This document shows, piece after piece, positions 1 through 40,522 of a stretch of 40,522 nucleotides of DNA. A program made the translations under genes and the position numbers. The DNA comes from a virus. Location of the stretch: the IMG/VR virus record IMGVR_UViG_3300048834_000178, positions 1 through 40,522 of that record, one strand, 5' to 3'. Numbering within the stretch: position 1 is the stretch's first letter; every line of letters begins with the position of its first letter. The notes under the pieces were generated by a model. That model saw only the letters and a program-made list of their open reading frames with translations. It did no database searches and had not been told where the DNA came from.

Positions 1-151
1 GCGCTGACCGCCGAATGGGAAGGCCCACGCCAATGCCTATCGTCGTGACCCCGCCGCCCGGCGACGCCGCCGACGGGCGCCTCCCGGCGCATCTGGTCCG
101 CACGCTCGTATGGCACCGTGCCACCAACGGCTACGACCCCGCCGACGGCGC
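1..151. repeat. Terminal direct repeat, left copy
   Basis: Bases 1-151 match 40372-40522 with a single difference (A at 127, C at 40498), so the contig closes into a circle of about 40,371 bp. Bases 1-48 carry the last codons and stop of the glycosyltransferase gene that starts at 39736, and base 33 begins the next gene. An assembly overlap on a circular or circularly permuted genome explains this. The mismatch changes codon 32 of that gene from Asn to Thr and points to a population variant or a read error. Confidence 0.95.
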
Positions 152-6897: not shown

Positions 6898-8069
6898 ACG
6901 ATGCGGCCTGGCGGCTGGAAGTGTACGACGGGACGACCTTCACGCTGCGCGGCCTGTGCGACGCCTACACGCGCCTTTCCGTCAACCTGAAACACCGCGC
7001 CGGGGGCGGGTGGGCGTTAGAGGTGCCCGCCTCCCACCATCAAGCCGCCCTGTTCTCGGAAGGGGCGCGTATCGCGGTGTGGGCGGAATGGGACCGCGCC
7101 GCGCCGCTGATGAGCGGCCCCGTCACGGCGCTGGCGACCGTCACACCCGACGCTAACCGGCCCGCGATGCTCACCGTCAGCGGCGTGGACGACACTGCCC
7201 TGCTCGCCGACCGCATCGTCCTCCCCGACCCGTCCTCCCCGCCCGACGACCAGGCCGCGGACTCGCATTGGACGTACACCGGCCCGGCGGAAGCCGCGAT
7301 CCGCGAGGCCGTCGGTCGCAACGCGGGCAGGACCGCCCTGCCGTACCGGCGGTTCTGCGACAACGACCCGCACGGGAGGTTAGCGTCGGGCTGTATCGGG
7401 TCGGTGCGGAACGTGTCGGCCAGGTTCGACAACCTGCTCACCCTCGTCAACGACCTGGCCTCGCTGGACAACCTCGCGGTGAGGCTGTACCAGCCGCCCG
7501 GCATCCGCGACCTGCACCTGGACGTCGCCGCTACCACCGACCGCTCGGAAGCGGTGCTGCTGTCGTTCGGGGCGGGTACGCTCAACGCGGCGAACGCCAC
7601 CGTCACCGCCCCCACCGCCACGCATGTCCTGGTCGCGGGAGGGGGGGAAGGCACCGACCGGCTACTGCTGGAACGCGCCGACCCGGCACTGGCCGCAACA
7701 TGGTCACGGCGCATCGAAACGCTACGCGACGCCCGCGACACCGACGACCTCGCGGTCCTCGCCGAACGCGGCGACGAAACCCTCGCGGAGGCGGGCGCGA
7801 CCGCAGGGCTGTCCCTAGACCCGACGGACCTGCCCGGCCAGCAGTTCGGCGTGCACTACCGCCTCGGCGACACGGTACGGGTGACCGTCGCAGGTTCAAC
7901 CTGGACTGACGTGGTGACCGCCGTGCAGATCGACGTGACCGCCGACGGCGGCGCCGCCGTGAAACCGTCCGTCGGGAACCCCGACACCGCCGACCTCAAC
8001 ACCCCCCTGATCTACCGGCGCGTCCGGGACATCATCAGACGCATCGACGCATTGGAGCGCAGGCAATGA
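6891..8069 (+). CDS. Minor tail protein, Gp37-like (tail hub)
   Basis: A 392-residue protein following Dit, with the N-terminal WRLEVYDGTTFTLRGL and the TLTVSGVDDTALLADRIVLP-like region of the siphovirus ReqiPepy6 Gp37-like family, which forms part of the baseplate hub in actinophages. The ATG at 6891 is chosen because AAAGGTGG lies about 8 bases upstream; an in-frame GTG at 6879 is possible but lacks this spacing. A C-terminal helix (RRVRDIIRRIDALERRQ) likely mediates trimer formation. The stop overlaps the next ATG (ATGA). Confidence 0.75.
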   Translation: MVNDAAWRLEVYDGTTFTLRGLCDAYTRLSVNLKHRAGGGWALEVPASHHQAALFSEGARIAVWAEWDRAAPLMSGPVTALATVTPDANRPAMLTVSGVDDTALLADRIVLPDPSSPPDDQAADSHWTYTGPAEAAIREAVGRNAGRTALPYRRFCDNDPHGRLASGCIGSVRNVSARFDNLLTLVNDLASLDNLAVRLYQPPGIRDLHLDVAATTDRSEAVLLSFGAGTLNAANATVTAPTATHVLVAGGGEGTDRLLLERADPALAATWSRRIETLRDARDTDDLAVLAERGDETLAEAGATAGLSLDPTDLPGQQFGVHYRLGDTVRVTVAGSTWTDVVTAVQIDVTADGGAAVKPSVGNPDTADLNTPLIYRRVRDIIRRIDALERRQ

Positions 8070-9016
8070 GCATCACCAGTTGGCCTTTCCACAACGGCAG
8101 CAGCGGCACCCCCGTGTACGAGGACCAGTGGACGCGGATGGCCCGGCAGTGGGCGCCGTCGGGTGTCGTCGGATACCCGCTGGACTCGCAGTTCCAGGTG
8201 TACGCGAACAACTCCGGGCGGGAGGTACACGTGCGGGCGGGGGTGGCGTGCGTACGCGGGCATTGGGTCCGGTCCACCGCCGAGGAAACCCTGCCCGTCG
8301 CGGCGAACCCGTCGGGCGACCCGCGCGCTGACCGGGTGGTGCTGCGGCTCGACCCGTCCGCGAACAGCATCACCTTGGCGGTGCTGACGGGAACCCCCGC
8401 CGGGGGGATCATCGGCCCGCTGCCGCCCACCCCCGAAACCACCGACACCGGCGTCTACGACTTGCCGTTGGCGGTCGTGAACGTAGGGCCAGGGGTAGCC
8501 GCGATCACCGCCCCCGACGTATCCGACGAACGCGTCTACGCCTCGCCCCCGCCGCTGACAGGCGCATCCGGCAGGGTTCCGCTGGACCCTGCCCCCGGAC
8601 AACTCATGAAAGAGGCTGACACCGGGCTGCTGCGGGCGTGGGACGGCGCGCAGTGGGAAACCGTCAACGCCGACCTGCTCGAAGAATGGGTGGTCGTCGC
8701 TGTTGCGGCGCCTTACGCGACCCAGCCTGCCGCTGCTGCCGCGAAGTTCAAATACTGGCGGCGCGGCACGGAAGCGACCCTGGCCGGTTCGCTGAACCGC
8801 ACCGTCTCGGAAGCCTCGAACGCCGTTCTCGTAGCGGCAGGGGCGATGCCCACACCGCAGGCAGAACGCCGGTTCAACGCCTTGGCCGTGAACAACACGA
8901 CCGGCGCGTGGACCGCCGCCCCGTGCCAGATATATACCGACGGGACGCTCGTCGCCTCACTGCCGTCGGCGGGGGCGTACAGCGTGTTCTTCGACTCCTG
9001 CTTCTACACAATCTGA
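8066..9016 (+). CDS. Minor tail/baseplate protein
   Basis: A 316-residue protein begins MSITSWPFHNGSSGTPVYEDQW. Together with the VHVRAGVACVRGHWV and PRADRVVLRLDPSANSITLAV segments, this is characteristic of an actinophage baseplate or upper-fibre protein that links the hub to receptor-binding fibres. The C-terminal about 100 residues are a separate beta-rich unit (FKYWRRGTEATLAGSLNRTV onward) ending in aromatic residues and may contact the host surface. Translation is coupled to the upstream gene by ATGA. Confidence 0.7.
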   Translation: MSITSWPFHNGSSGTPVYEDQWTRMARQWAPSGVVGYPLDSQFQVYANNSGREVHVRAGVACVRGHWVRSTAEETLPVAANPSGDPRADRVVLRLDPSANSITLAVLTGTPAGGIIGPLPPTPETTDTGVYDLPLAVVNVGPGVAAITAPDVSDERVYASPPPLTGASGRVPLDPAPGQLMKEADTGLLRAWDGAQWETVNADLLEEWVVVAVAAPYATQPAAAAAKFKYWRRGTEATLAGSLNRTVSEASNAVLVAAGAMPTPQAERRFNALAVNNTTGAWTAAPCQIYTDGTLVASLPSAGAYSVFFDSCFYTI

Positions 9017-9031
9017 GAGGCTCCCCCCGCT

Positions 9032-11437
9032 ATGAGATTCCTGTACGGGCTTACGTCTGCGGACGTGACAACATCGACCACGGGCATGGTGCTCCCGCAT
9101 GTGCCCGGCCTGACCGTCTGGTACGACCCGGAGCGCAGCGCACGCTGCCTCGACCTGGCTGACCTTGACGGTGCGGAGACGACCTCGCTTACGTCCGACG
9201 GCTACGGCAGGATCGGCTGCTACGGCCCCCACGGGTACAGGGGGAACCTGTGGGTCGATCCCGGCACAGGCGCCCCGCTCGTCTTGCTGCGCCCGGTTGA
9301 CCTGTTCGGCCCGCAGGGGGAGCCTGGCCCCGCCGGTCCTGCAACAATCGGCGGGCTACTCACCGGCAGGGGGGATCTGGCCGTAGGCCGGGGCGACGGG
9401 ACAGCGATTCGGGCAGCCGCTGGCGCTGACGGTGCCGCCGTGGTCTACGACTCCGCTGCTGCGGGCGGGGTCGGCTCGCTCCCGCTATGGACCGGCGTTC
9501 GCAACATTGTTCCGGGAGGCGTTGCTACAACGTCCGACCTCGCAGCGTTCATAGGGGACCGCGCCACCGTCGCACTTGACACTTCGAATAAGCCGAGCGG
9601 GCAGGCCTCCAGCCTCCTTGTGACCGCGACCAGCACGCCCGCGAACGCCTACGCCTGCGGCAATGCCTCTCTCGGCACTCTCGACGTGACCGACCTGGCC
9701 GGCAAAGCCTGTACGTTGTTCTGGGCGGGTCAGTCAAGCGTGCTCAGCGGGACACTGACGTTCCGAATCATGTACTTCCTTGCGGACGGCACCACCGCCG
9801 CCTCGACCCCGTACAACACCAAGACGCTGACCATGAGCGGTGCCTGGCAGGAGAAGGCCGACAGTATCACGATCCCAGCCGACGCCCGGCGGGTCAGTTT
9901 CCGCGCCTACGCGACGACAACGGCAGGCCAGACCTACCGACTGGCGAAGATAGGACTAGCCGAGGGCACGCACGCGACGTGGGTGGCCGGTGCAACGCTG
10001 CTGTCTGGGCCGTTCGTCCCCGACTCGAGCGTCCGCACCGCGTCGATCACCCCCGGGGCTGTGGGCGCCGGGGCGATGGCCGCGCAGGCTGTGGGCCTCC
10101 TGGCGTTGGCAGAGGACGCCCAGGTCGCCGCCGGGGCGCTGGTGTCTTTGGAGGACGCGGCAGGCGTGAGCGTGGTCAAGGCCCGTAGCAACGTGGTCAG
10201 CCAGACCCTCAACAGCAGCCGCAACTTCGTCCAGCAGACCTCGTGGCAGGTCGCCGGGACCACGGTATCCAACGCCAACGACGAGATCGGCCCGATCCGG
10301 CTGGACTACAGGGGCCTGGTCGATGAGTGGATGGGCGCTAATCACGTCGTGCAGGGCTGGGAGGTGCCCGCCGGGTCGCTGACCGCCGCCGACATTGGCA
10401 AGGTGTGGCAGTCGGGCACCCTGCGCATGACACTGCTGGATGTGGCTGGGGGCACCGCGTCCTTCTCGATGCGCCACAATGCGGACGCGACCAGCGCTGA
10501 CAAGACCAAGCCCACCGGGACCTGGACCAGCACTTCAGGCGGCCCGTCCATCGACTTCACGCCATGCACCAGCGGCGGCTACTTGCAGCCCATGACCGTC
10601 AGCGGGCCGCTGTGGACCCCTGGCCGGGCACGCATGCTGGCGCGGGTGTGGACCAACCGCATCGTCGGGTGGGACACCGTCGTCCTGGCGCAGCAGGCGT
10701 CGGTGGGGACGAAGGTGGACTACGCGGCCCTGGCTCCGCTGGCGATCCTGGAGAACATCTGGCGGTGGCCGGGGGACCAGCCGGGGGTCATCATCGTGGA
10801 TTCCAAGGTGACAGCGGGAAGTCAGGGGCTGACCGTGAAGATGTGGAGCGGGTTGCAGGCTGAGGCGCGCTCCCAGCCGTACCGCTTGAGCGCGTTCGTG
10901 GGGACCACGGGCACCGGGATGGACACGTGGGCTGTGCCCACGAGCCAGATTTACGCGGCGCCCGCCAACTGGGTCGGCGGGCAGCCGCCGACCTGCGTCA
11001 TGCACCAGTTCACCTACGGGGTCGGCGGTGGTATCGCTATCGGGTCGCTGGGCTGCTCCCGTGACCGGGGGCTGCTGACCGAACTGGCTGCCCGCACCAA
11101 CGACTCAGGCGGCAAGGCGTACATCGTCGCGGTGGGGGCGGGGAACGGCACGGTCGGGGCGGGTGAGACGGTCTGGCATCGCGGCTTCCGCTCCACGACC
11201 GCCGAACCGGCCACGTCCGACCGTGGCCTGCACATTGTCAAAGACCCCGCCACTGGGGTGGTGCGCTGGTGGCTGATGGCCGGATCGACCGGTGCGGCCA
11301 CTCACCCGGCGGCGATTATGCACGCCGGGAAGCGGCTTGTGAAGGCGCGCGGCACGGCGACCGTTGACCCGCTGGTCACCCCGACCGGCTGCACCGTGAC
11401 CGGTGCCGGGTGGGCCGAAGGCACGGTCGAGTGGTGA
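9032..11437 (+). CDS. Large minor tail protein, probable tail fibre / receptor-binding protein
   Basis: An 801-residue protein that closes the tail gene set. After about 90 residues there is a short collagen-like stretch (GPQGEPGPAGPA), common in phage fibres. The long remainder is Thr/Ser/Gly-rich and beta-like (for example TVSGPLWTPGRARMLARVW), with repeated jelly-roll or lectin-like patterns. The final segment (ARGTATVDPLVTPTGCTVTGAGW) resembles a small C-terminal adhesin motif. Codon choice is less strictly C-ending than in neighbouring structural genes, so the receptor-binding part may have been exchanged. The GAGAGG ribosome-binding site lies about 12 bases upstream of the ATG. Confidence 0.72.
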   Translation: MRFLYGLTSADVTTSTTGMVLPHVPGLTVWYDPERSARCLDLADLDGAETTSLTSDGYGRIGCYGPHGYRGNLWVDPGTGAPLVLLRPVDLFGPQGEPGPAGPATIGGLLTGRGDLAVGRGDGTAIRAAAGADGAAVVYDSAAAGGVGSLPLWTGVRNIVPGGVATTSDLAAFIGDRATVALDTSNKPSGQASSLLVTATSTPANAYACGNASLGTLDVTDLAGKACTLFWAGQSSVLSGTLTFRIMYFLADGTTAASTPYNTKTLTMSGAWQEKADSITIPADARRVSFRAYATTTAGQTYRLAKIGLAEGTHATWVAGATLLSGPFVPDSSVRTASITPGAVGAGAMAAQAVGLLALAEDAQVAAGALVSLEDAAGVSVVKARSNVVSQTLNSSRNFVQQTSWQVAGTTVSNANDEIGPIRLDYRGLVDEWMGANHVVQGWEVPAGSLTAADIGKVWQSGTLRMTLLDVAGGTASFSMRHNADATSADKTKPTGTWTSTSGGPSIDFTPCTSGGYLQPMTVSGPLWTPGRARMLARVWTNRIVGWDTVVLAQQASVGTKVDYAALAPLAILENIWRWPGDQPGVIIVDSKVTAGSQGLTVKMWSGLQAEARSQPYRLSAFVGTTGTGMDTWAVPTSQIYAAPANWVGGQPPTCVMHQFTYGVGGGIAIGSLGCSRDRGLLTELAARTNDSGGKAYIVAVGAGNGTVGAGETVWHRGFRSTTAEPATSDRGLHIVKDPATGVVRWWLMAGSTGAATHPAAIMHAGKRLVKARGTATVDPLVTPTGCTVTGAGWAEGTVEW

Positions 11438-13901: not shown

Positions 13902-14198
13902 TCAGGCCTCCTTGGCTTCGTTGGTGCGGCGCAGCAGGAAGGCGATGCTTCCGATGGCTTCGCGGGTGGCGGTGCGCTTGGTTTCGGCGGTGGCGAGGTC
14001 GCGGGCCAGGCCGGGGATGTTGAGCATGGCCGGGAAGTTGGGGTCGTACTGGGCGGCGCGTTCGGCGATCTGCGCGGCGAGTTTGATGCAGTCCTGGGTG
14101 GCCGACTCGTACGTCCAGAGGGTGTGGTCGGCGACCATGTGCAGGTCGCTTCCGTCGAAGTCGGTGCCGTAGGTGTCGGTGAAGGTGGTGGAGAGCAT
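13902..14198 (-). CDS. Hypothetical helical protein, first gene of leftward operon
   Basis: A 98-residue protein beginning MLSTTFTDTYGTDFDGSDLHM with a GAAAGGG ribosome-binding site. After the acidic N-terminus it is mainly helical (LAAQIAERAAQYDPNF, then ATAETKRTATREAIGSIAFLLRR). It is the first gene downstream of the promoter repeat at 14221-14270. No known domain is evident. It lies 3 bases from the next gene, so the two are co-transcribed. Confidence 0.65.
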   Translation of the reverse strand: MLSTTFTDTYGTDFDGSDLHMVADHTLWTYESATQDCIKLAAQIAERAAQYDPNFPAMLNIPGLARDLATAETKRTATREAIGSIAFLLRRTNEAKEA

Positions 14199-14220
14199 TG
14201 CGGTTGCCCTTTCGGTTGGT

Positions 14221-14270
14221 TACTTTGTTACTAGAACTATAACCATATTTCTGATGGGAGGTAAAGCCTT
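14221..14270 (-). promoter_or_regulatory. Leftward promoter with conserved operator-like block (copy 1)
   Basis: Read leftward, TTTACC (14265-14260) and TATAGT (14241-14236) are separated by 18 bases, a fair sigma70-type promoter. About 45 bases match a second copy at 31626-31676, including an 18-base identical block over the -10 box that is more conserved than a promoter alone needs. GTTA...TAAC around the -10 box forms an imperfect inverted repeat. It would drive the operon 14198-12688. Confidence 0.7.
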
Positions 14271-14296
14271 TCGGGCAACCAATTCCGTAAGAACTC

Positions 14297-22728: not shown

Positions 22729-23298
22729 GTGATTGCTCCTGATCTTGTTCCGTTGGCTGTGCCGATTGATTCGTTGCGTGAGTTGCCGGGGAATCCGCGT
22801 CGGGGTGATGTGGGGGCGGTGGCTGGTTCGTTGCGGCGGTTCGGGCAGCGGAAGCCGATTGTGGTTCGTCAGGATGGGACGATCATCGCGGGGAATCACA
22901 CGTGGAAGGCTGCGCGTGAGTTGGGGTGGGATCAGATCGCTGTGGTGCGTGTCGCGGACGACGATCAGGAGGCGTTGGCGTTCGCGTTGGCGGATAACCG
23001 GACTGGCGACCTGGGCGTGTACGACGATGAGGCGCTGTTGGACCTGCTGAACGAGGTGGATACCGGCCCTTCGGGGTTGGCGGGCACTGGCTACACCGAC
23101 GATGATCTAGCCGCGCTGCTGCATCTGATTGAGCCGCCTGACCTGGATGATCTGGCCGACACGATTGGCGACCCGACTGAGGACGACGGGCTGGTGCGTG
23201 TGCCTGTGCGGCTGCCAGCCGAGTTGGCGAAGGCGTTTGAGGACGCGCTGGGCAATGACCATGTGGCGGCTGTGAGTAGGTGGCTTGATGGGGGCTGA
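22729..23298 (+). CDS. ParB-like nuclease-domain protein
   Basis: A 189-residue protein from GTG 22729 with the ParB/Srx N-terminal fold: VPIDSLRELPGNPRRGDVGA, then RFGQRKPIVVRQDGTIIAGN and HTWKAARELGW, and the ALADNRTGDLGVYDDEALL segment usual in phage copies. In phages these proteins often stand next to DNA-modifying enzymes such as methyltransferases. Here it overlaps the DpdA-like gene by 11 bases, so it may help choose or open DNA sites for base exchange; that role is inferred. The catalytic state (CTPase or nuclease) cannot be judged. Confidence 0.8.
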   Translation: MIAPDLVPLAVPIDSLRELPGNPRRGDVGAVAGSLRRFGQRKPIVVRQDGTIIAGNHTWKAARELGWDQIAVVRVADDDQEALAFALADNRTGDLGVYDDEALLDLLNEVDTGPSGLAGTGYTDDDLAALLHLIEPPDLDDLADTIGDPTEDDGLVRVPVRLPAELAKAFEDALGNDHVAAVSRWLDGG

Positions 23299-24178
23299 CG
23301 GTATCGAGTTCCCCGTCAACACTTTGGCGAGTTTCTTCTACTACCGGCAGCAGGACATGGCCGCGCTGCACGGTCTGGGGATGCGCATCATCGGGGACTC
23401 CGGGGCGTTCTCCGCTGACTCGCAGGGGGCACCGATTGACCGCGACGAGTTCTTTGCGTGGGCGCGTAGGTGGCGCCCGAACTTGCATTGGGTCGCTGCT
23501 CTTGACGTGATCGGCGATGCCGAGCGGACGTGGCGGAACTGGCGTGCCAGCCCGGTCGATCTGGGCTTGGTCCCGACGCTGCATTACGGCTGCGACCCGC
23601 GCGAGATGGACCGGTATGTCGCCGAGGGTGTGAGCCTGATGGGGCTTGGCGGGATGGTGAGGTTCCGTGCCGAACCGAAGCGGCTGCTGCGCTGGTGTTT
23701 GAAGGTGATGCGGTATGCGCGGGACACACACCCGCACGTGCGGTTCCACGGCTGGGGGGTCAGTAACCCCGAACTGCTCATGAACCTGCCGTGGTGGTCC
23801 GTGGATTCTTCTGGGTTCGGCGCCGCGTACCGTTTCGGTCGGTTGGCTTTGTGGGACCCCGCAACCAAGAAGCACCGAGGCGTCGCGATGGACGGTCGGC
23901 AGTCTGCTGGGGTGGCCGCGTTGCTGCGGCAACACTACGGGGTGCGGTGGGACGAGATCACCCGTTCAACGTCGGCTACCCGCCGCACGGTCATTCGTGT
24001 GTCGATCAGGTCGATGCAGCTGCAAGAGGCGTACTTGCAGCAGCGTTGGCAGGTCGCGCCGCCCCCGTCGCTTGAAGGCGACGGGGTGGGTCCACAGATT
24101 CACTTCGCGGATTCAGCCCCCAGGAATTGGCTAATGGCGCTGACACCACCACTAGGGAACGAGGAAACAGCATCGTGA
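23288..24178 (+). CDS. dpdA: DpdA-like DNA guanine transglycosylase
   Basis: A 296-residue protein of the tRNA-guanine transglycosylase superfamily. GDSGAFSA with Asp37 matches the Asp of the TGT substrate pocket, GLGGMVR at 119-125 matches the TGT GGL loop, and SVDSSGFG with Asp173 is the likely nucleophile. The C-x-C-x2-C zinc site of tRNA TGTs is absent and the protein is shorter, as in phage DpdA enzymes, which insert preQ0 or its derivatives into DNA. A full preQ0 pathway follows in the same operon. ATG 23288 (AGTAGGTGG upstream) overlaps the ParB-like gene by 11 bases; an in-frame TTG at 23285 is less likely. Confidence 0.85.
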   Translation: MGADGIEFPVNTLASFFYYRQQDMAALHGLGMRIIGDSGAFSADSQGAPIDRDEFFAWARRWRPNLHWVAALDVIGDAERTWRNWRASPVDLGLVPTLHYGCDPREMDRYVAEGVSLMGLGGMVRFRAEPKRLLRWCLKVMRYARDTHPHVRFHGWGVSNPELLMNLPWWSVDSSGFGAAYRFGRLALWDPATKKHRGVAMDGRQSAGVAALLRQHYGVRWDEITRSTSATRRTVIRVSIRSMQLQEAYLQQRWQVAPPPSLEGDGVGPQIHFADSAPRNWLMALTPPLGNEETAS

Positions 24179-24834
24179 CGATCTGGCTATCACTGTCAGG
24201 CGGGATGGATTCGGCAACATTGCTCGCCGAGGCTGTGTCTACCGGCGACGAGGTGCGCCCGGTCGGGTTCGACTACGGGCAGCGGCATAGCCGCGAGCTG
24301 CTTAACGCCGCGCAGCTGGCCGAGCACTACGGCTGTCCTTTCCGTGTGGTGGGGTTGTCCCGTCTGCGTTCCCCGGCGCTCACGGACGGCGCCCAGGTGC
24401 CGCACGGGCACTACGCGGCTGACACGATGACCGCGACCGTGGTGCAGGGCCGGAACTTGTTGTTCGTGGCGCAGCTTGTCGGGTTGGCCCAGCCGCAGGA
24501 CGAGGTGTGGGTGGGTGTCCATGCTGGCGACCACGCGATCTACGCCGATTGCCGCCCGGCGTTCGTTGAGCCGCTGGCCGCGGCTGTGCAGCATGGCTAC
24601 GGGGTGACGTTACGGGCGCCGTTCCTGACCATGACGAAGGCGCAGATAGCGCAGCGGGGCGGTGTCCTCGACGTGCCCTACGGGCTTACGTGGTCGTGCT
24701 ACGAGGGCGGCGAGTCGCATTGCGGTCGGTGTGGGACATGCGTGGAGCGCGCCGAAGCGTTCCACCTGGCGGGTGTGGACGACCCCACCCACTACGCCGA
24801 TCCGGGCTACTGGCGGACGCAGGTCGAAGCATGA
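24175..24834 (+). CDS. queC: 7-cyano-7-deazaguanine (preQ0) synthase
   Basis: A 219-residue protein from GTG 24175. SLSGGMDS at 6-13 is the PP-loop that activates the carboxylate with ATP, and CYEGGESHCGRCGTC places zinc-binding Cys at 175, 183, 186 and 189. It converts 7-carboxy-7-deazaguanine and ammonia to preQ0, the last step before DNA insertion. The GTG overlaps the dpdA stop (GTGA) with GAGGAAA upstream; an in-frame start inside dpdA would add residues absent from the family. All family motifs are intact. Confidence 0.93.
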   Translation: MTIWLSLSGGMDSATLLAEAVSTGDEVRPVGFDYGQRHSRELLNAAQLAEHYGCPFRVVGLSRLRSPALTDGAQVPHGHYAADTMTATVVQGRNLLFVAQLVGLAQPQDEVWVGVHAGDHAIYADCRPAFVEPLAAAVQHGYGVTLRAPFLTMTKAQIAQRGGVLDVPYGLTWSCYEGGESHCGRCGTCVERAEAFHLAGVDDPTHYADPGYWRTQVEA

Positions 24835-25226
24835 TCGTCGTGGCCTGCGGTAAGAAGAAGAAGAACGCGCCTGCCGCCGCGAAGGACTTGTACATCGGCA
24901 CAAGTTTCGTGTTGGCGCGTAAGGCTGCCGAGGCGACTGGTGAGCCGTGGATGATCCTGTCGGCACGGCACGGCCTGGTATCCCCGGACCTTGTGCTCGC
25001 CCCGTACGACCAGACGTTGCGTACCAGGGCCGACGCTGCCCGGTTGACGGCACTTCTTCGACGTCAGCGGCTCCCGCTGGCGGTCGTGTCCTGGTGCCCC
25101 GATCTTTACAACCGTGCGCTGGAAGGCGCAGGCGTGCGTGTGGCGGAACCGTTGCGCGGAATGCGGTTCGGGTACCGCAGTCAGTATTGGGCGAGGATCG
25201 CCGCGCGACGACGGGGGGCTGCGTGA
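24831..25226 (+). CDS. DUF6884/YaaA-like protein inside the preQ0 operon
   Basis: A 131-residue protein starting MIVVACGKKK with Cys6, then DLYIGTSFVLARKAAE, and MILSARHGLVSPDLVLAPYD at 41-60. I recognise the CGKKK...SAxHGL...PYD pattern of DUF6884-type proteins. The ILS-x-x-x-GL-x-x-P-x-x-x-x-x-PY order also resembles the YaaA (DUF328) family. It is locked between queC and queD by 4- and 3-base overlaps, so it probably acts on preQ0, its nucleotide or modified DNA (for example a tailoring or DNA-handling step). No activity can be named from sequence. Confidence 0.65.
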   Translation: MIVVACGKKKKNAPAAAKDLYIGTSFVLARKAAEATGEPWMILSARHGLVSPDLVLAPYDQTLRTRADAARLTALLRRQRLPLAVVSWCPDLYNRALEGAGVRVAEPLRGMRFGYRSQYWARIAARRRGAA

Positions 25227-25645
25227 TGTGGGTAATCAGCAAGGAGCATTCGTTCTCCGCGTCGCATGTGCTGGCAGGGCTCCCGGAAGGGCACCCGTGC
25301 GGACGGTTGCACGGGCATAACTACAATCTGCGGATCACGGTGAGCGCCGATGAGCTCGACGCTACGGGGTTCGTTGTGGACTATCACGACCTGGCACACT
25401 TCACCGGCTGGGTGGATGAGCGGCTGGACCACCGACACCTTAACGACGTCGAGGTGCTGCACCGTATCCACGCGGACCTGACGGGCTCCGTGGAGGACTG
25501 GCACCGCATGAACCCCACTGCGGAGAACCTGTCCATGGTGCTGTCGCGGGTGCTGCGTAACAGTCTGAGCGCTGAGGCGCGCGGGCTCACTGTCGCCGTG
25601 GCCGTGTCGGAAACGCCGAAGACGTGGGCGACATGGCAGTCCTGA
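25226..25645 (+). CDS. queD: 6-carboxy-5,6,7,8-tetrahydropterin synthase
   Basis: A 139-residue member of the 6-pyruvoyl-tetrahydropterin synthase family. Zinc ligands are His14 (SASHV), His29 and His31 (RLHGHNYNL), and the catalytic Cys is Cys25 (HPCGRLHG). LDHRHLND and PTAENL are the further conserved blocks, with Glu129 near the C-terminus. It converts dihydroneopterin triphosphate to 6-carboxytetrahydropterin. The ATG overlaps the previous stop by one base, and its own TGATG stop/start leads into queE. Length and motifs are complete. Confidence 0.93.
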   Translation: MWVISKEHSFSASHVLAGLPEGHPCGRLHGHNYNLRITVSADELDATGFVVDYHDLAHFTGWVDERLDHRHLNDVEVLHRIHADLTGSVEDWHRMNPTAENLSMVLSRVLRNSLSAEARGLTVAVAVSETPKTWATWQS

Positions 25646-26352
25646 TGCGCGAGTGGACGTTACCGGTCGCGGACGTCTTCGGGCCGGTGTGGCAGGGTGA
25701 AGGCCCCCATGCTGGTTTGCGCTGCTCGTTCCTGCGTCTGGGGTTGTGCAACCTGCATTGCGAGTGGTGTGACACGGCGTACACGTGGGACCGTGACCGG
25801 TTCGATGTGCAGGCGGAATGCCCGCCGCGTGACGCCGCCTGGATACGCGGCGAGCTGGCAGGTCACGGCACCGACCGGCTCGTGTTGACCGGTGGTGAGC
25901 CGTTGATTCACCGCCGCAATGAGGCGCTGCTGGACGTGCTGACGTGGTGGCGGGCAGCCGGTCGCACGGTCGATGTGGAAACGAACGGAACTCTGCCGCC
26001 CCCGGCGTGGCACCAGTGGATTGATCTGGCTGCGGTGTCCCCGAAACTCGGCCAGAGCGCCGACGCGTACGACCGGAGGATCAGGCCCGATGTGCTCGCC
26101 GAATGGGCGGGACTGCCCCAGGCCGTCCTCAAGGTGGTGTGCCGTGACGGCACCGACGTCGCCGACCTGGCACGCAAACTGCATACATGGGGCGACTGGT
26201 CGCCTGACCGGGTGTGGGTGATGCCCGAAGGTGACAGCGCCAGCGACGTGCTCGACACGGCGCGGGAGATCGAGGAGTCGGTGACCGACTGCGGGTTCAA
26301 CTTGACCTTGCGGATGCACACCCTCATCTACGGGAAGGAGCGTGGCCGGTGA
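25645..26352 (+). CDS. queE: 7-carboxy-7-deazaguanine synthase (radical SAM)
   Basis: A 235-residue radical SAM enzyme with CNLHCEWC (Cys35, Cys39, Cys42) binding the iron-sulfur cluster, the [11 protein letters not shown] opening typical of QueE and [10 protein letters not shown] (GGEP at 83-86) for SAM binding. It rearranges 6-carboxytetrahydropterin to 7-carboxy-7-deazaguanine. ATG 25645 in a TGATG overlap is chosen because the family starts just before this GEG motif; GTG 25624 and ATG 25633 would extend into queD. Confidence 0.92.
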
Positions 26353-26960
26353 GCTGGCCTGAGGACCACATGCGTGACGTGATCGACGCGATGCCAGACG
26401 CCGATGTGGCGCTGCTGGGGGTGCGGGCGTTGCTGCGCCTGGCCGGGCGGGACCCGGACGAGCCGGGCATCGTTGACACCCCGGCGAGGGTGCTGCGCGC
26501 ATGGTCGGAGCAGACATCGGCGCCGGGCGACCCGGCGCAGCTGCTGGCGGTGCAGTTCCCCGACGCGGCGCAGTATGACCAGATGATCGCGGTCGGGCCG
26601 GTGCCGTTCGCGTCGGTGTGCGAACACCATCTGCTGCCCTTCACCGGTCACGCGTGGGTCGCCTACATACCCAACGGTAAAGGCGTCGTCGGGTTGTCGA
26701 AACTGGCGCGGCTTGTGGAGCATTACGCACGCCGACCGCAGATCCAGGAACGGCTCACAGCGCAGATCGCCGACGCGCTGGTGGAGCACCTGGACCCTGT
26801 GGGTGCCGGGTGTGTCGTGCGGGCCTCGCACACATGCATGACGTTACGGGGGGTGCGTAAGGACGGGGCGCTCATGACCACCTCGGCTATCCACGGTGAG
26901 TTGAAGGACCAGCCTGCCGCGCGTGCCGAGTTCATGGCTCTCGTCGGGCTAGGACCCTGA
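26349..26960 (+). CDS. folE: GTP cyclohydrolase I
   Basis: A 203-residue protein with [18 protein letters not shown] (zinc ligands Cys91 and His94), [20 protein letters not shown], and [12 protein letters not shown] (Cys163, third zinc ligand). It converts GTP to 7,8-dihydroneopterin triphosphate, the entry step of deazaguanine synthesis. A phage copy would raise precursor supply beyond host folate needs. The GTG at 26349 overlaps the queE stop and has AAGGAG upstream; ATG 26370 is a weaker alternative. It closes the cassette. Confidence 0.94.
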
Positions 26961-31409: not shown

Positions 31410-31601
31410 TTACGCCTCCTTGACGACGAAGATGGGGTCGCCGTCGAGAATGTGGACCTGGCGGGTGCGGCCTGCGGCCCACTCGACGGTGGCGCGCATC
31501 CCGGCGGGCGACGGCTTGCAGGTGAGGACGGTGTAGTAGTTACCGGCGCCCCACTCGATACGCATGCCCGGCTTGATCTGGGCTGGTGTGATCTGGCGCA
31601 T
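31410..31601 (-). CDS. Hypothetical beta-rich protein, first gene of second leftward operon
   Basis: A 63-residue protein, MRQITPAQIKPGMRIEWGAG then YYTVLTCKPSP and VHILDGDPIFVV, looking like a small SH3- or KOW-like barrel. The AGGAGG ribosome-binding site is strong. It is the first gene after the promoter repeat at 31626-31676. Function unknown. Confidence 0.65.
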   Translation of the reverse strand: MRQITPAQIKPGMRIEWGAGNYYTVLTCKPSPAGMRATVEWAAGRTRQVHILDGDPIFVVKEA

Positions 31602-31625
31602 TGCGGGCCTCCTTGGTGCGGCTCA

Positions 31626-31676
31626 ACTTGTTATTAGAACTATAACCATATTTCGGGGGGGAAGTAAAGCCTTTCC
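31626..31676 (-). promoter_or_regulatory. Leftward promoter with conserved operator-like block (copy 2)
   Basis: Read leftward, TTTACT (31668-31663) and TATAGT (31644-31639) are 18 bases apart, as in copy 1 at 14221-14270. The 18-base block over the -10 box is identical and GTTAT...ATAAC forms a 5-bp inverted repeat around it. It drives the operon 31601-29107 and probably shares one regulator with copy 1. Confidence 0.7.
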
Positions 31677-31707
31677 GCGAAACAAGTTTCAGGAGTTCCC
31701 CGGCGTC

Positions 31708-39742: not shown

Positions 39743-40419
39743 CCGTCGTCATGCCCCGTTCCGGGCGGGAAACCGCCGCGCGGGAAGCCGTACGCGCGTA
39801 CGTCGCCGACCGGTACCGGCGGCTGCACCCCGAATGGGCGCTCGTGCACGCCGAAGCGCCCGGCGCCCGGTTCAGCAAAGGCGCCGCCGTCAACCCGCAC
39901 CTCACCGGCGACGGCGTACTGATCGTCGCCGACGCCGACTCCTACACCGACCCGCGCGCCCTCACGCAGGCCGTAGAAGCCGTCGAGGCGGGCGTAGCCG
40001 CGTGGGCTGTACCTTTCACCGTCGTCAAGCGGATAGGGAAGGAGAGCACCGCTCTCGTCCTTTCTGGGGCTACCGTCGCCCGGCCACGCATCGAGCGCGC
40101 CGCGCGGGCGCTGCCTGGTGGCGGGATCGTCGTCGCTTCCGCCGAGGCGTGGGCCACCGTCAACGGGTACGACCCGCGTTTCCGGGGGTGGGGCGGGGAG
40201 GACGCCGCCGTCGGCACCGCACTGAGGCTGCTCGTCGGCCCGGCGCTCACCCCTACCATGCCGACCACGCTGTGGCACCTGTGGCACCCGGCTACGCGCC
40301 GAGTCGCCCCCGCCAACCGGGCGCTGTGGGACCGGTGGAGAGCCGCCCGGCGCGACCCCGCCGCCGCCGCCGCGCTGACCGCCGAATGGGAAGGCCCACG
40401 CCAATGCCTATCGTCGTGA
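39736..40419 (+). CDS. Glycosyltransferase-like protein 3 (GWGGED type)
   Basis: A 227-residue protein with GVLIVADADSYTDPRALTQA (DxD metal site) and VNGYDPRFRGWGGEDAAVGT. The GWGGED motif is that of the galactosyltransferase C-terminal domain family. It ends in the terminal repeat and its last bases are duplicated at 1-48. The third glycosyltransferase of the set, it overlaps the next structural gene, so all three are expressed with the virion genes. Confidence 0.82.
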   Translation: MVTVVMPRSGRETAAREAVRAYVADRYRRLHPEWALVHAEAPGARFSKGAAVNPHLTGDGVLIVADADSYTDPRALTQAVEAVEAGVAAWAVPFTVVKRIGKESTALVLSGATVARPRIERAARALPGGGIVVASAEAWATVNGYDPRFRGWGGEDAAVGTALRLLVGPALTPTMPTTLWHLWHPATRRVAPANRALWDRWRAARRDPAAAAALTAEWEGPRQCLSS

Positions 40420-40522
40420 CCCCGCCGCCCGGCGACGCCGCCGACGGGCGCCTCCCGGCGCATCTGGTCCGCACGCTCGTATGGCACCGTGCCACCACCG
40501 GCTACGACCCCGCCGACGGCGC
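40372..40522. repeat. Terminal direct repeat, right copy
   Basis: Matches 1-151 apart from C at 40498 in place of A at 127. It holds the end of glycosyltransferase 3 and the first 119 bases of the connector gene. Confidence 0.95.
40404..40522 (+). CDS. Head-tail connector, 5' fragment (second copy of gene at 33)
   Basis: The first 39 codons of the connector gene, cut by the window end. Codon 32 is ACC (Thr) here and AAC (Asn) in the copy at 33. On the closed circle there is only one gene. Confidence 0.85.
   Translation, partial: MPIVVTPPPGDAADGRLPAHLVRTLVWHRATTGYDPADG

What the first reader, a model, noticed from the sequence alone, without database searches (positions are those of the whole stretch)
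22729..26960. Complete GTP-to-preQ0 pathway plus DpdA-like enzyme: predicted 7-deazaguanine modification of phage DNA
Seen: seven overlapping genes encode a ParB-like protein, a TGT-superfamily enzyme without the tRNA-type zinc motif, QueC, a DUF6884-like protein, QueD, QueE and FolE, each with its key residues. Known: phages with DpdA plus these enzymes carry 2'-deoxy-7-deazaguanines in DNA that block many restriction enzymes. Inferred: because no QueF, amidotransferase or ArcS-like gene is present, the likely base is dPreQ0, unless the DUF6884 protein changes it. The cassette is self-sufficient from GTP.
Basis: partly seen in the sequence, partly recalled or inferred. Interest (0 to 1): 0.85.

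Follow-up and report, generated by a model that had tools for sequence, protein, structure and literature searches.

The report
Phage DNA-disguise cassette with extra gene
This phage carries a complete set of genes that builds an altered guanine from GTP and swaps it into its own DNA, a known disguise against bacterial restriction enzymes, plus one extra gene, found in the same place in six other phages or prophages, that may turn the altered base into a different one.

Summary
Seven overlapping genes (22729-26960) encode ParB-like, DpdA, QueC, DUF6884, QueD, QueE and FolE proteins. The DpdA aligns with the validated phage 9g DpdA (profile E 1e-43; D72, H196 and D215 pair with D38, H155 and D174), has no tRNA-type zinc motif, and its confident model best matches a TGT. 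The contig has a 151-nt terminal repeat, so it is probably a complete 40.4-kb genome, with no QueF, ArcS or amidotransferase. Without DUF6884 this is the dPreQ0 cassette of Rosebush-type mycobacteriophages (known since 2019).

The new part is the DUF6884 gene. Of 23 related cassettes with queC and queD, 7 divergent ones carry it exactly between those genes. Bacterial DpdC, reported to convert dPreQ0 to dADG, has this domain at its N-terminus (hhalign 95.7%). I therefore expect a nitrile-tailoring step, most likely giving dADG, at about even odds. Against this, Rosebush-group phages carry a DUF6884 gene outside the cassette, yet Rosebush DNA is almost purely dPreQ0; DUF6884 also occurs in phages without DpdA; and the phage proteins lack DpdC's C-terminal half.

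The parts
22729..23298 (+). ParB-like (ParB_N) protein, first gene of the cassette, as in Bclasvirinae and Gordonia phage Sour
   Evidence: PF02195 3.3e-8; phrog_723 4e-41; same position in L005, L007, L008; not a DpdB/DndB (PF14072 absent)
23285..24178 (+). DpdA: TGT-fold enzyme predicted to exchange guanine for preQ0 in DNA (start TTG 23285 or ATG 23288)
   Evidence: phrog_7068 1.8e-73; family HMM matches 9g DpdA at 1.3e-43, with D72/H196/D215 paired to D38/H155/D174; AF2 pLDDT 93, best PDB match TGT 4gh3, prob 1.00, E 4.5e-3
24175..24834 (+). QueC, 7-cyano-7-deazaguanine (preQ0) synthase
   Evidence: PF06508 1.3e-49; TIGR00364 above its cut-off; SGGMDS and zinc cysteines
24831..25226 (+). 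DUF6884 (YaaA-fold) protein, homologous to the N-terminal domain of DpdC; predicted tailoring enzyme acting on the nitrile of preQ0/dPreQ0
   Evidence: PF21818 2.5e-24; PADLOC DpdC 1.1e-9; AF2 pLDDT 96, best PDB match YaaA 5caj E 9.9e-4; hhalign to real DpdCs 95.7%, E 1.1e-8; same slot in 7 cassettes
25226..25645 (+). QueD, 6-carboxytetrahydropterin synthase
   Evidence: PF01242 1.5e-30; motifs
25624..26352 (+). QueE, radical SAM 7-carboxy-7-deazaguanine synthase
   Evidence: phrog_2076 3e-49; TIGR03365 1.8e-24, below its cut-off; CxxxCxxC, GGEP
26349..26960 (+). FolE, GTP cyclohydrolase I
   Evidence: PF01227 2.7e-59; NF006826 above its cut-off
1..151 (.). Left copy of the terminal direct repeat, indicating a probably complete circular or terminally redundant assembly
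   Evidence: 99% identical to 40372-40522, one mismatch
40372..40522 (.). Right copy of the terminal direct repeat

Best explanation
The cassette is a phage 7-deazaguanine DNA-modification system. FolE, QueD, QueE and QueC make preQ0 from GTP, and DpdA exchanges selected guanines in phage DNA for preQ0. This part is near-certain from homology (about 0.93), but its activity was not shown here. The extra DUF6884 protein, translated directly behind QueC, then most likely acts on the nitrile of dPreQ0 (or preQ0). Its invariant Cys and Lys (C-x3-K) are candidate catalytic residues, and the most likely product is the amide dADG, the reaction attributed to bacterial DpdC. The result would be a phage-contained GTP-to-dADG route that protects phage DNA from restriction. 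The DUF6884 step is an inference. The confidence given is for the whole statement including that step.
For: Pathway and DpdA; dPreQ0 measured in Rosebush with the same gene set (PMC6884629). DUF6884: bona fide DpdCs (L077, beside annotated dpdA/dpdB/dpdD/dpdK/dpdJ; L061, beside DndB-type DpdB and preQ0 genes) share its motifs, and PADLOC DpdC models match it. It lies exactly between queC and queD in 7 of 23 cassettes with DpdA 43-54% identical to the window's, including a Nocardia contig, and directly next to DpdA in archaeal virus HRTV-29. In this DpdA family DUF6884 occurs in 14 of 17 sufficiently long records with a stand-alone queC and in 0 of 4 without one (Fisher p 0.006, not corrected for kinship). 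Other cassettes carry a different tailoring enzyme: Gat-QueC in L016, QueF in Rinkes.
Against: Rosebush-group phages (35 records incl. Rhinoforte, gp8) carry a DUF6884 gene, yet Rosebush DNA has 28% of G as dPreQ0 and only 0.003% dADG; the Rosebush record itself was not available, so its gene is inferred from its species group. DUF6884 is also in many phages without any DpdA found, e.g. cluster G mycobacteriophages. The phage proteins (122-142 aa) lack the C-terminal half of DpdC. Salmonella phage 7-11 and Campylobacter phage CP220, reported to contain dADG (PMC8306585), have no DUF6884, so dADG can arise without it. The structural hit to YaaA and DNA glycosylases fits DNA binding or base flipping as well as nitrile chemistry.
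Confidence: 0.5

Rival explanations
1. The final base is dPreQ0, as in Rosebush and. DUF6884 does not change the base; it is a DNA-binding or base-flipping helper, reader or repair factor for DpdA-modified DNA.
For: Rosebush: same gene set, dPreQ0 measured, and its species group carries DUF6884. The fold matches YaaA and the uracil-DNA-glycosylase family. Pfam describes a DNA-binding cleft and a predicted flipped base for DUF6884 member YfjM (PMC11701544).
Against: The Rosebush-group gene is a solitary reverse-strand gene with SAKYG and CA in the motifs, while all 7 in-cassette copies have CGxxK and S-A/G-x-H-G and are co-directional with the cassette genes. CAjan makes dPreQ0 without DUF6884, so it is not needed for insertion.
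Confidence: 0.32
2. DUF6884 converts preQ0/dPreQ0 to something other than dADG (for example an amidine or amine adduct, by analogy with ArcS), giving a base not yet catalogued.
For: Foldseek lists AF0587 among YaaA-like hits. ArcS adds lysine to the preQ0 nitrile (PMC11298593); that ArcS carries a C-x3-K-type motif is my recollection, not tested.
Against: No ArcS-type DUF5591 in the contig. The closest characterised relatives by sequence are DpdCs, not ArcS.
Confidence: 0.1
3. DUF6884 is an unrelated mobile 'moron' gene that happens to sit in the operon.
For: DUF6884 genes occur as solitary reverse-strand genes between structural genes in several phages, in phages with no DpdA nearby, and commonly on plasmids.
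Against: Same queC/queD slot in 7 divergent cassettes, motifs conserved in all of them, and patchy gain or loss of the gene at that slot on the DpdA tree.
Confidence: 0.06
4. The cassette serves tRNA queuosine or a secondary metabolite rather than DNA.
For: preQ0 is shared by those pathways (established knowledge; no tool result here favours it).
Against: The transglycosylase is of the DNA type: 9g-like residues, no zinc motif. The contig encodes no QueF, and a Rosebush-like gene set is proven for DNA.
Confidence: 0.02

Closest known systems
Rosebush-type dPreQ0 cassette of Bclasvirinae mycobacteriophages and Gordonia phage Sour
   Same: Same gene order ParB-DpdA-QueC-QueD-QueE-FolE, same DpdA family, overlapping genes
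   Different: Those cassettes have no DUF6884 between queC and queD; in the Bclasvirinae examples a DUF6884 gene lies elsewhere on the reverse strand, and Sour has none
Bacterial Dpd island (DpdA, DpdB, DpdC)
   Same: A DpdA, the DpdC N-terminal domain, and preQ0 genes as in L061/L062
   Different: No DndB/DGQHR-type DpdB; ParB_N protein instead; no restriction genes seen; DUF6884 protein lacks the DpdC C-terminal half
Enterobacteria phage 9g dG+ system
   Same: Homologous DpdA and preQ0 enzymes
   Different: 9g uses Gat-QueC to make dG+ and has no DUF6884
HRTV-29 (genus Dpdavirus) DUF6884-DpdA pair
   Same: DUF6884 directly next to DpdA
   Different: Archaeal virus, different DpdA type, no preQ0 genes in the 16 kb viewed

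Membership tests
Phage DpdA (DNA preQ0 transglycosylase) | TGT fold | tested here: met
   AF2 model pLDDT 93; best PDB match TGT 4gh3, prob 1.00 but E only 4.5e-3
Phage DpdA (DNA preQ0 transglycosylase) | Homology to 9g DpdA with its catalytic Asp pair and His196 | tested here: met
   Family HMM E 1.3e-43; D38, D174, H155 aligned to D72, D215, H196
Phage DpdA (DNA preQ0 transglycosylase) | No tRNA-type zinc site | tested here: met
   Two Cys only, no CxCxxC
Phage DpdA (DNA preQ0 transglycosylase) | Inserts preQ0 into DNA | not testable with these tools
   Needs LC-MS
Complete GTP-to-preQ0 pathway | FolE, QueD, QueE and QueC with active-site residues | tested here: met
DpdC (dPreQ0 to dADG) | DUF6884/YaaA-fold core with C-x3-K, LY, S-A-G and Y | tested here: met
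DpdC (dPreQ0 to dADG) | Conserved C-terminal region of about 150-190 aa | tested here: not met
   Window protein is 131 aa; DpdCs are 283-341 aa
DpdC (dPreQ0 to dADG) | Gene linked to dpdA | tested here: met
   Same operon in 7 cassettes
DpdC (dPreQ0 to dADG) | Linked to DpdB (DndB/DGQHR) | tested here: not met
   PF14072 absent from the window
DpdC (dPreQ0 to dADG) | dADG formation | not testable with these tools
   Needs LC-MS; Rosebush data argue against it for a distant relative
dG+ or dPreQ1 producers | Gat-QueC, ArcS or QueF present | tested here: not met

The most novel reading that the evidence does not exclude
A phage-borne, stand-alone DpdC-like enzyme has entered the same queC/queD slot of DpdA cassettes, possibly more than once. 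It would give phages a self-contained GTP-to-dADG (or other nitrile-derived base) route not described in the papers I could read.
Probability: 0.42. Interest if true: 0.6.

Novelty: new variant of a known kind. Interest (0 to 1): 0.45.

Why it matters
How phages acquire dADG is unexplained for several phages; PMC6884629 could only suggest an unknown protein or an ArcS-like activity. A small (131 aa), well-folded, cassette-linked candidate related to DpdC makes that question directly testable by adding or removing one gene. It would also give a first role to part of DUF6884, a large family of unknown function that is common on phages and plasmids.

Tried and rejected
A direct single-protein scan of viral contigs with DUF6884 found no relative, so alignment queries were used. 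Sequence searches of the PDB gave nothing for DpdA, DUF6884 or DpdC. I first took L024 (67,188 bp) for Rosebush itself; its length suggests the related phage Qyrzula (from memory). The Rosebush record is not in the collection, so its DUF6884 gene is inferred from 35 near-identical records of its group. Independent recruitment of DUF6884 to the slot was tested: in-cassette copies fall in three groups in the tree, but one origin is not rejected (AU p 0.06), so it is not claimed. QueF in the window was rejected: the hit is the FolE T-fold, below cut-off. A tRNA role was rejected. The key papers on new phage 7-deazaguanines (Cui 2023) and the 2024 review were not held, so a published phage DpdC cannot be excluded.

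Full report
Observation. The window is a single viral contig. Its ends are a 151-nt direct repeat with one mismatch, so it is probably a complete genome of about 40.37 kb, although IMG/VR classes it as linear. It has siphovirus-type genes (tape measure, minor tail proteins, RecE/RecT-like proteins, terminase, portal, major head protein) and 69% GC. Seven + strand ORFs at 22729-26960 overlap head to tail and encode ParB_N, DpdA, QueC, DUF6884, QueD, QueE and FolE proteins, with the expected motifs.

DpdA. The 297-aa protein has no Pfam hit but matches the PHROG of mycobacteriophage DpdAs at 1.8e-73. A profile of its relatives matches the experimentally validated 9g DpdA at 1.3e-43 and pairs D72, H196 and D215 with D38, H155 and D174. 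The protein has two Cys and no CxCxxC. The AF2 model (pLDDT 93) has a tRNA-guanine transglycosylase as best PDB match, with probability 1.00 but a modest E-value of 4.5e-3.

Known counterpart. Mycobacteriophages Saguaro, Quesadilla and Rhinoforte (Rosebushvirus) and Gordonia phage Sour have the same gene order without DUF6884. Hutinet et al. 2019 (PMC6884629) predicted and measured dPreQ0 in Rosebush (28% of G) with this gene set and showed restriction resistance. The cassette as such is therefore a new member of a known kind.

The extra gene. DUF6884 (131 aa) begins in an ATGA overlap with queC. Mapping of related loci shows DUF6884 exactly between queC and queD in 7 of 23 distinct cassettes: the window, L006, L013, L014, L042 (Nocardia transvalensis contig), L045 and L047/L055. 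Their DpdAs are 43-54% identical to the window's. All seven keep C-G-x-x-K, LY, S-A/G-x-H-G and Y. On the DpdA tree the presence of the gene changes at least four times on well-supported branches. Whether it entered the slot once or several times is open.

Relation to DpdC. GATOR-GC (PMC11888242) links DUF6884 with DpdC; PMC12839542 calls DpdC a DUF328/YaaA protein that hydrolyses dPreQ0 to dADG. I recovered DpdCs from islands with DpdB-type and other dpd or preQ0 genes (L061/L062; L077) and a third candidate, L079, in an unannotated record. The phage DUF6884 profile aligns with their N-terminal region (hhalign 95.7%, E 1.1e-8), including C-x3-K in the two that retain it, LY, SA-x-x-GL and Y. 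Two caveats apply: DpdCs have a further 150-190 C-terminal residues that the phage proteins lack, and the L077 protein as annotated starts after the C-x3-K region. The AF2 model of the window protein (pLDDT 96) matches YaaA best, then uracil-DNA glycosylase relatives.

Counter-evidence. Whole-record searches show DUF6884 elsewhere in the genomes of Saguaro, Quesadilla, CRB2, Rinkes, the Rosebush group, L015 and L050, often as a solitary reverse-strand gene. Rosebush DNA has only 0.003% dADG. DUF6884 also occurs in mycobacteriophage cluster G and on thousands of plasmids when a DpdC query is used. Conversely, Salmonella phage 7-11 and Campylobacter phage CP220, reported to contain dADG, lack it. 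So DUF6884 is neither sufficient nor necessary for dADG in phages. Still, within this DpdA family it occurs in 14 of 17 sufficiently long records with a stand-alone queC and in none of 4 without one (p 0.006, not corrected for kinship), and other cassettes carry Gat-QueC or QueF, as expected of a preQ0-linked tailoring slot.

Verdict. That the cassette puts a 7-deazaguanine into phage DNA is about 0.93 likely. That DUF6884 converts the nitrile, most likely to dADG, is about 0.5. Unaltered dPreQ0 is about 0.32. No activity was shown here.

Noticed in passing
L010 (Mycobacterium phage Rinkes) 1299-1691: Gene 2, annotated as GTP cyclohydrolase, is a QueF-like protein (PF14489 1.9e-14), so Rinkes is predicted to carry dPreQ1; its DpdA belongs to a separate, deeply diverged branch.
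   Followed up: partly
L047 5109-6847 (also L055): Two different DpdA genes in tandem: one of the window's family and one grouping with the Rinkes DpdA, in a cassette that also has DUF6884.
   Followed up: partly
L006 9135-10121 and L046 9759-10709: FolE carries an N-terminal extension with a weak phosphoribosyltransferase match, a possible PRTase-FolE fusion in two preQ0 cassettes.
   Followed up: partly
L053 4998-5405, L054 7735-8271: Cassettes without QueC have a conserved ~130-aa protein of no known family between DpdA and QueD; possibly an enzyme making a different base (CDG- or DG-type).
   Followed up: no
L016 6763-8154: Glutamine-amidotransferase-QueC fusion in a cassette of this DpdA family: predicted dG+.
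   Followed up: partly
L003 (HRTV-29) 7935-9060: DUF6884, annotated as peroxide stress protein YaaA, lies directly before DpdA in an archaeal tailed virus.
   Followed up: partly
window 14195-14282 and 31598-31685: An 88-nt imperfect direct repeat (75%) sharing TAGAACTATAACCATATTT, possibly a promoter or regulatory element.
   Followed up: no
window 9032-11437: 801-aa ORF downstream of the tail genes with no PHROG or Pfam match; possibly a receptor-binding or tail protein.
   Followed up: no
L077 (Enterobacter cloacae plasmid pPOL9A) 5986-6837: The hypothetical protein upstream of dpdA in a plasmid dpd island is an unannotated DpdC; its annotated start may be too far downstream, since the C-x3-K region is missing.
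   Followed up: no
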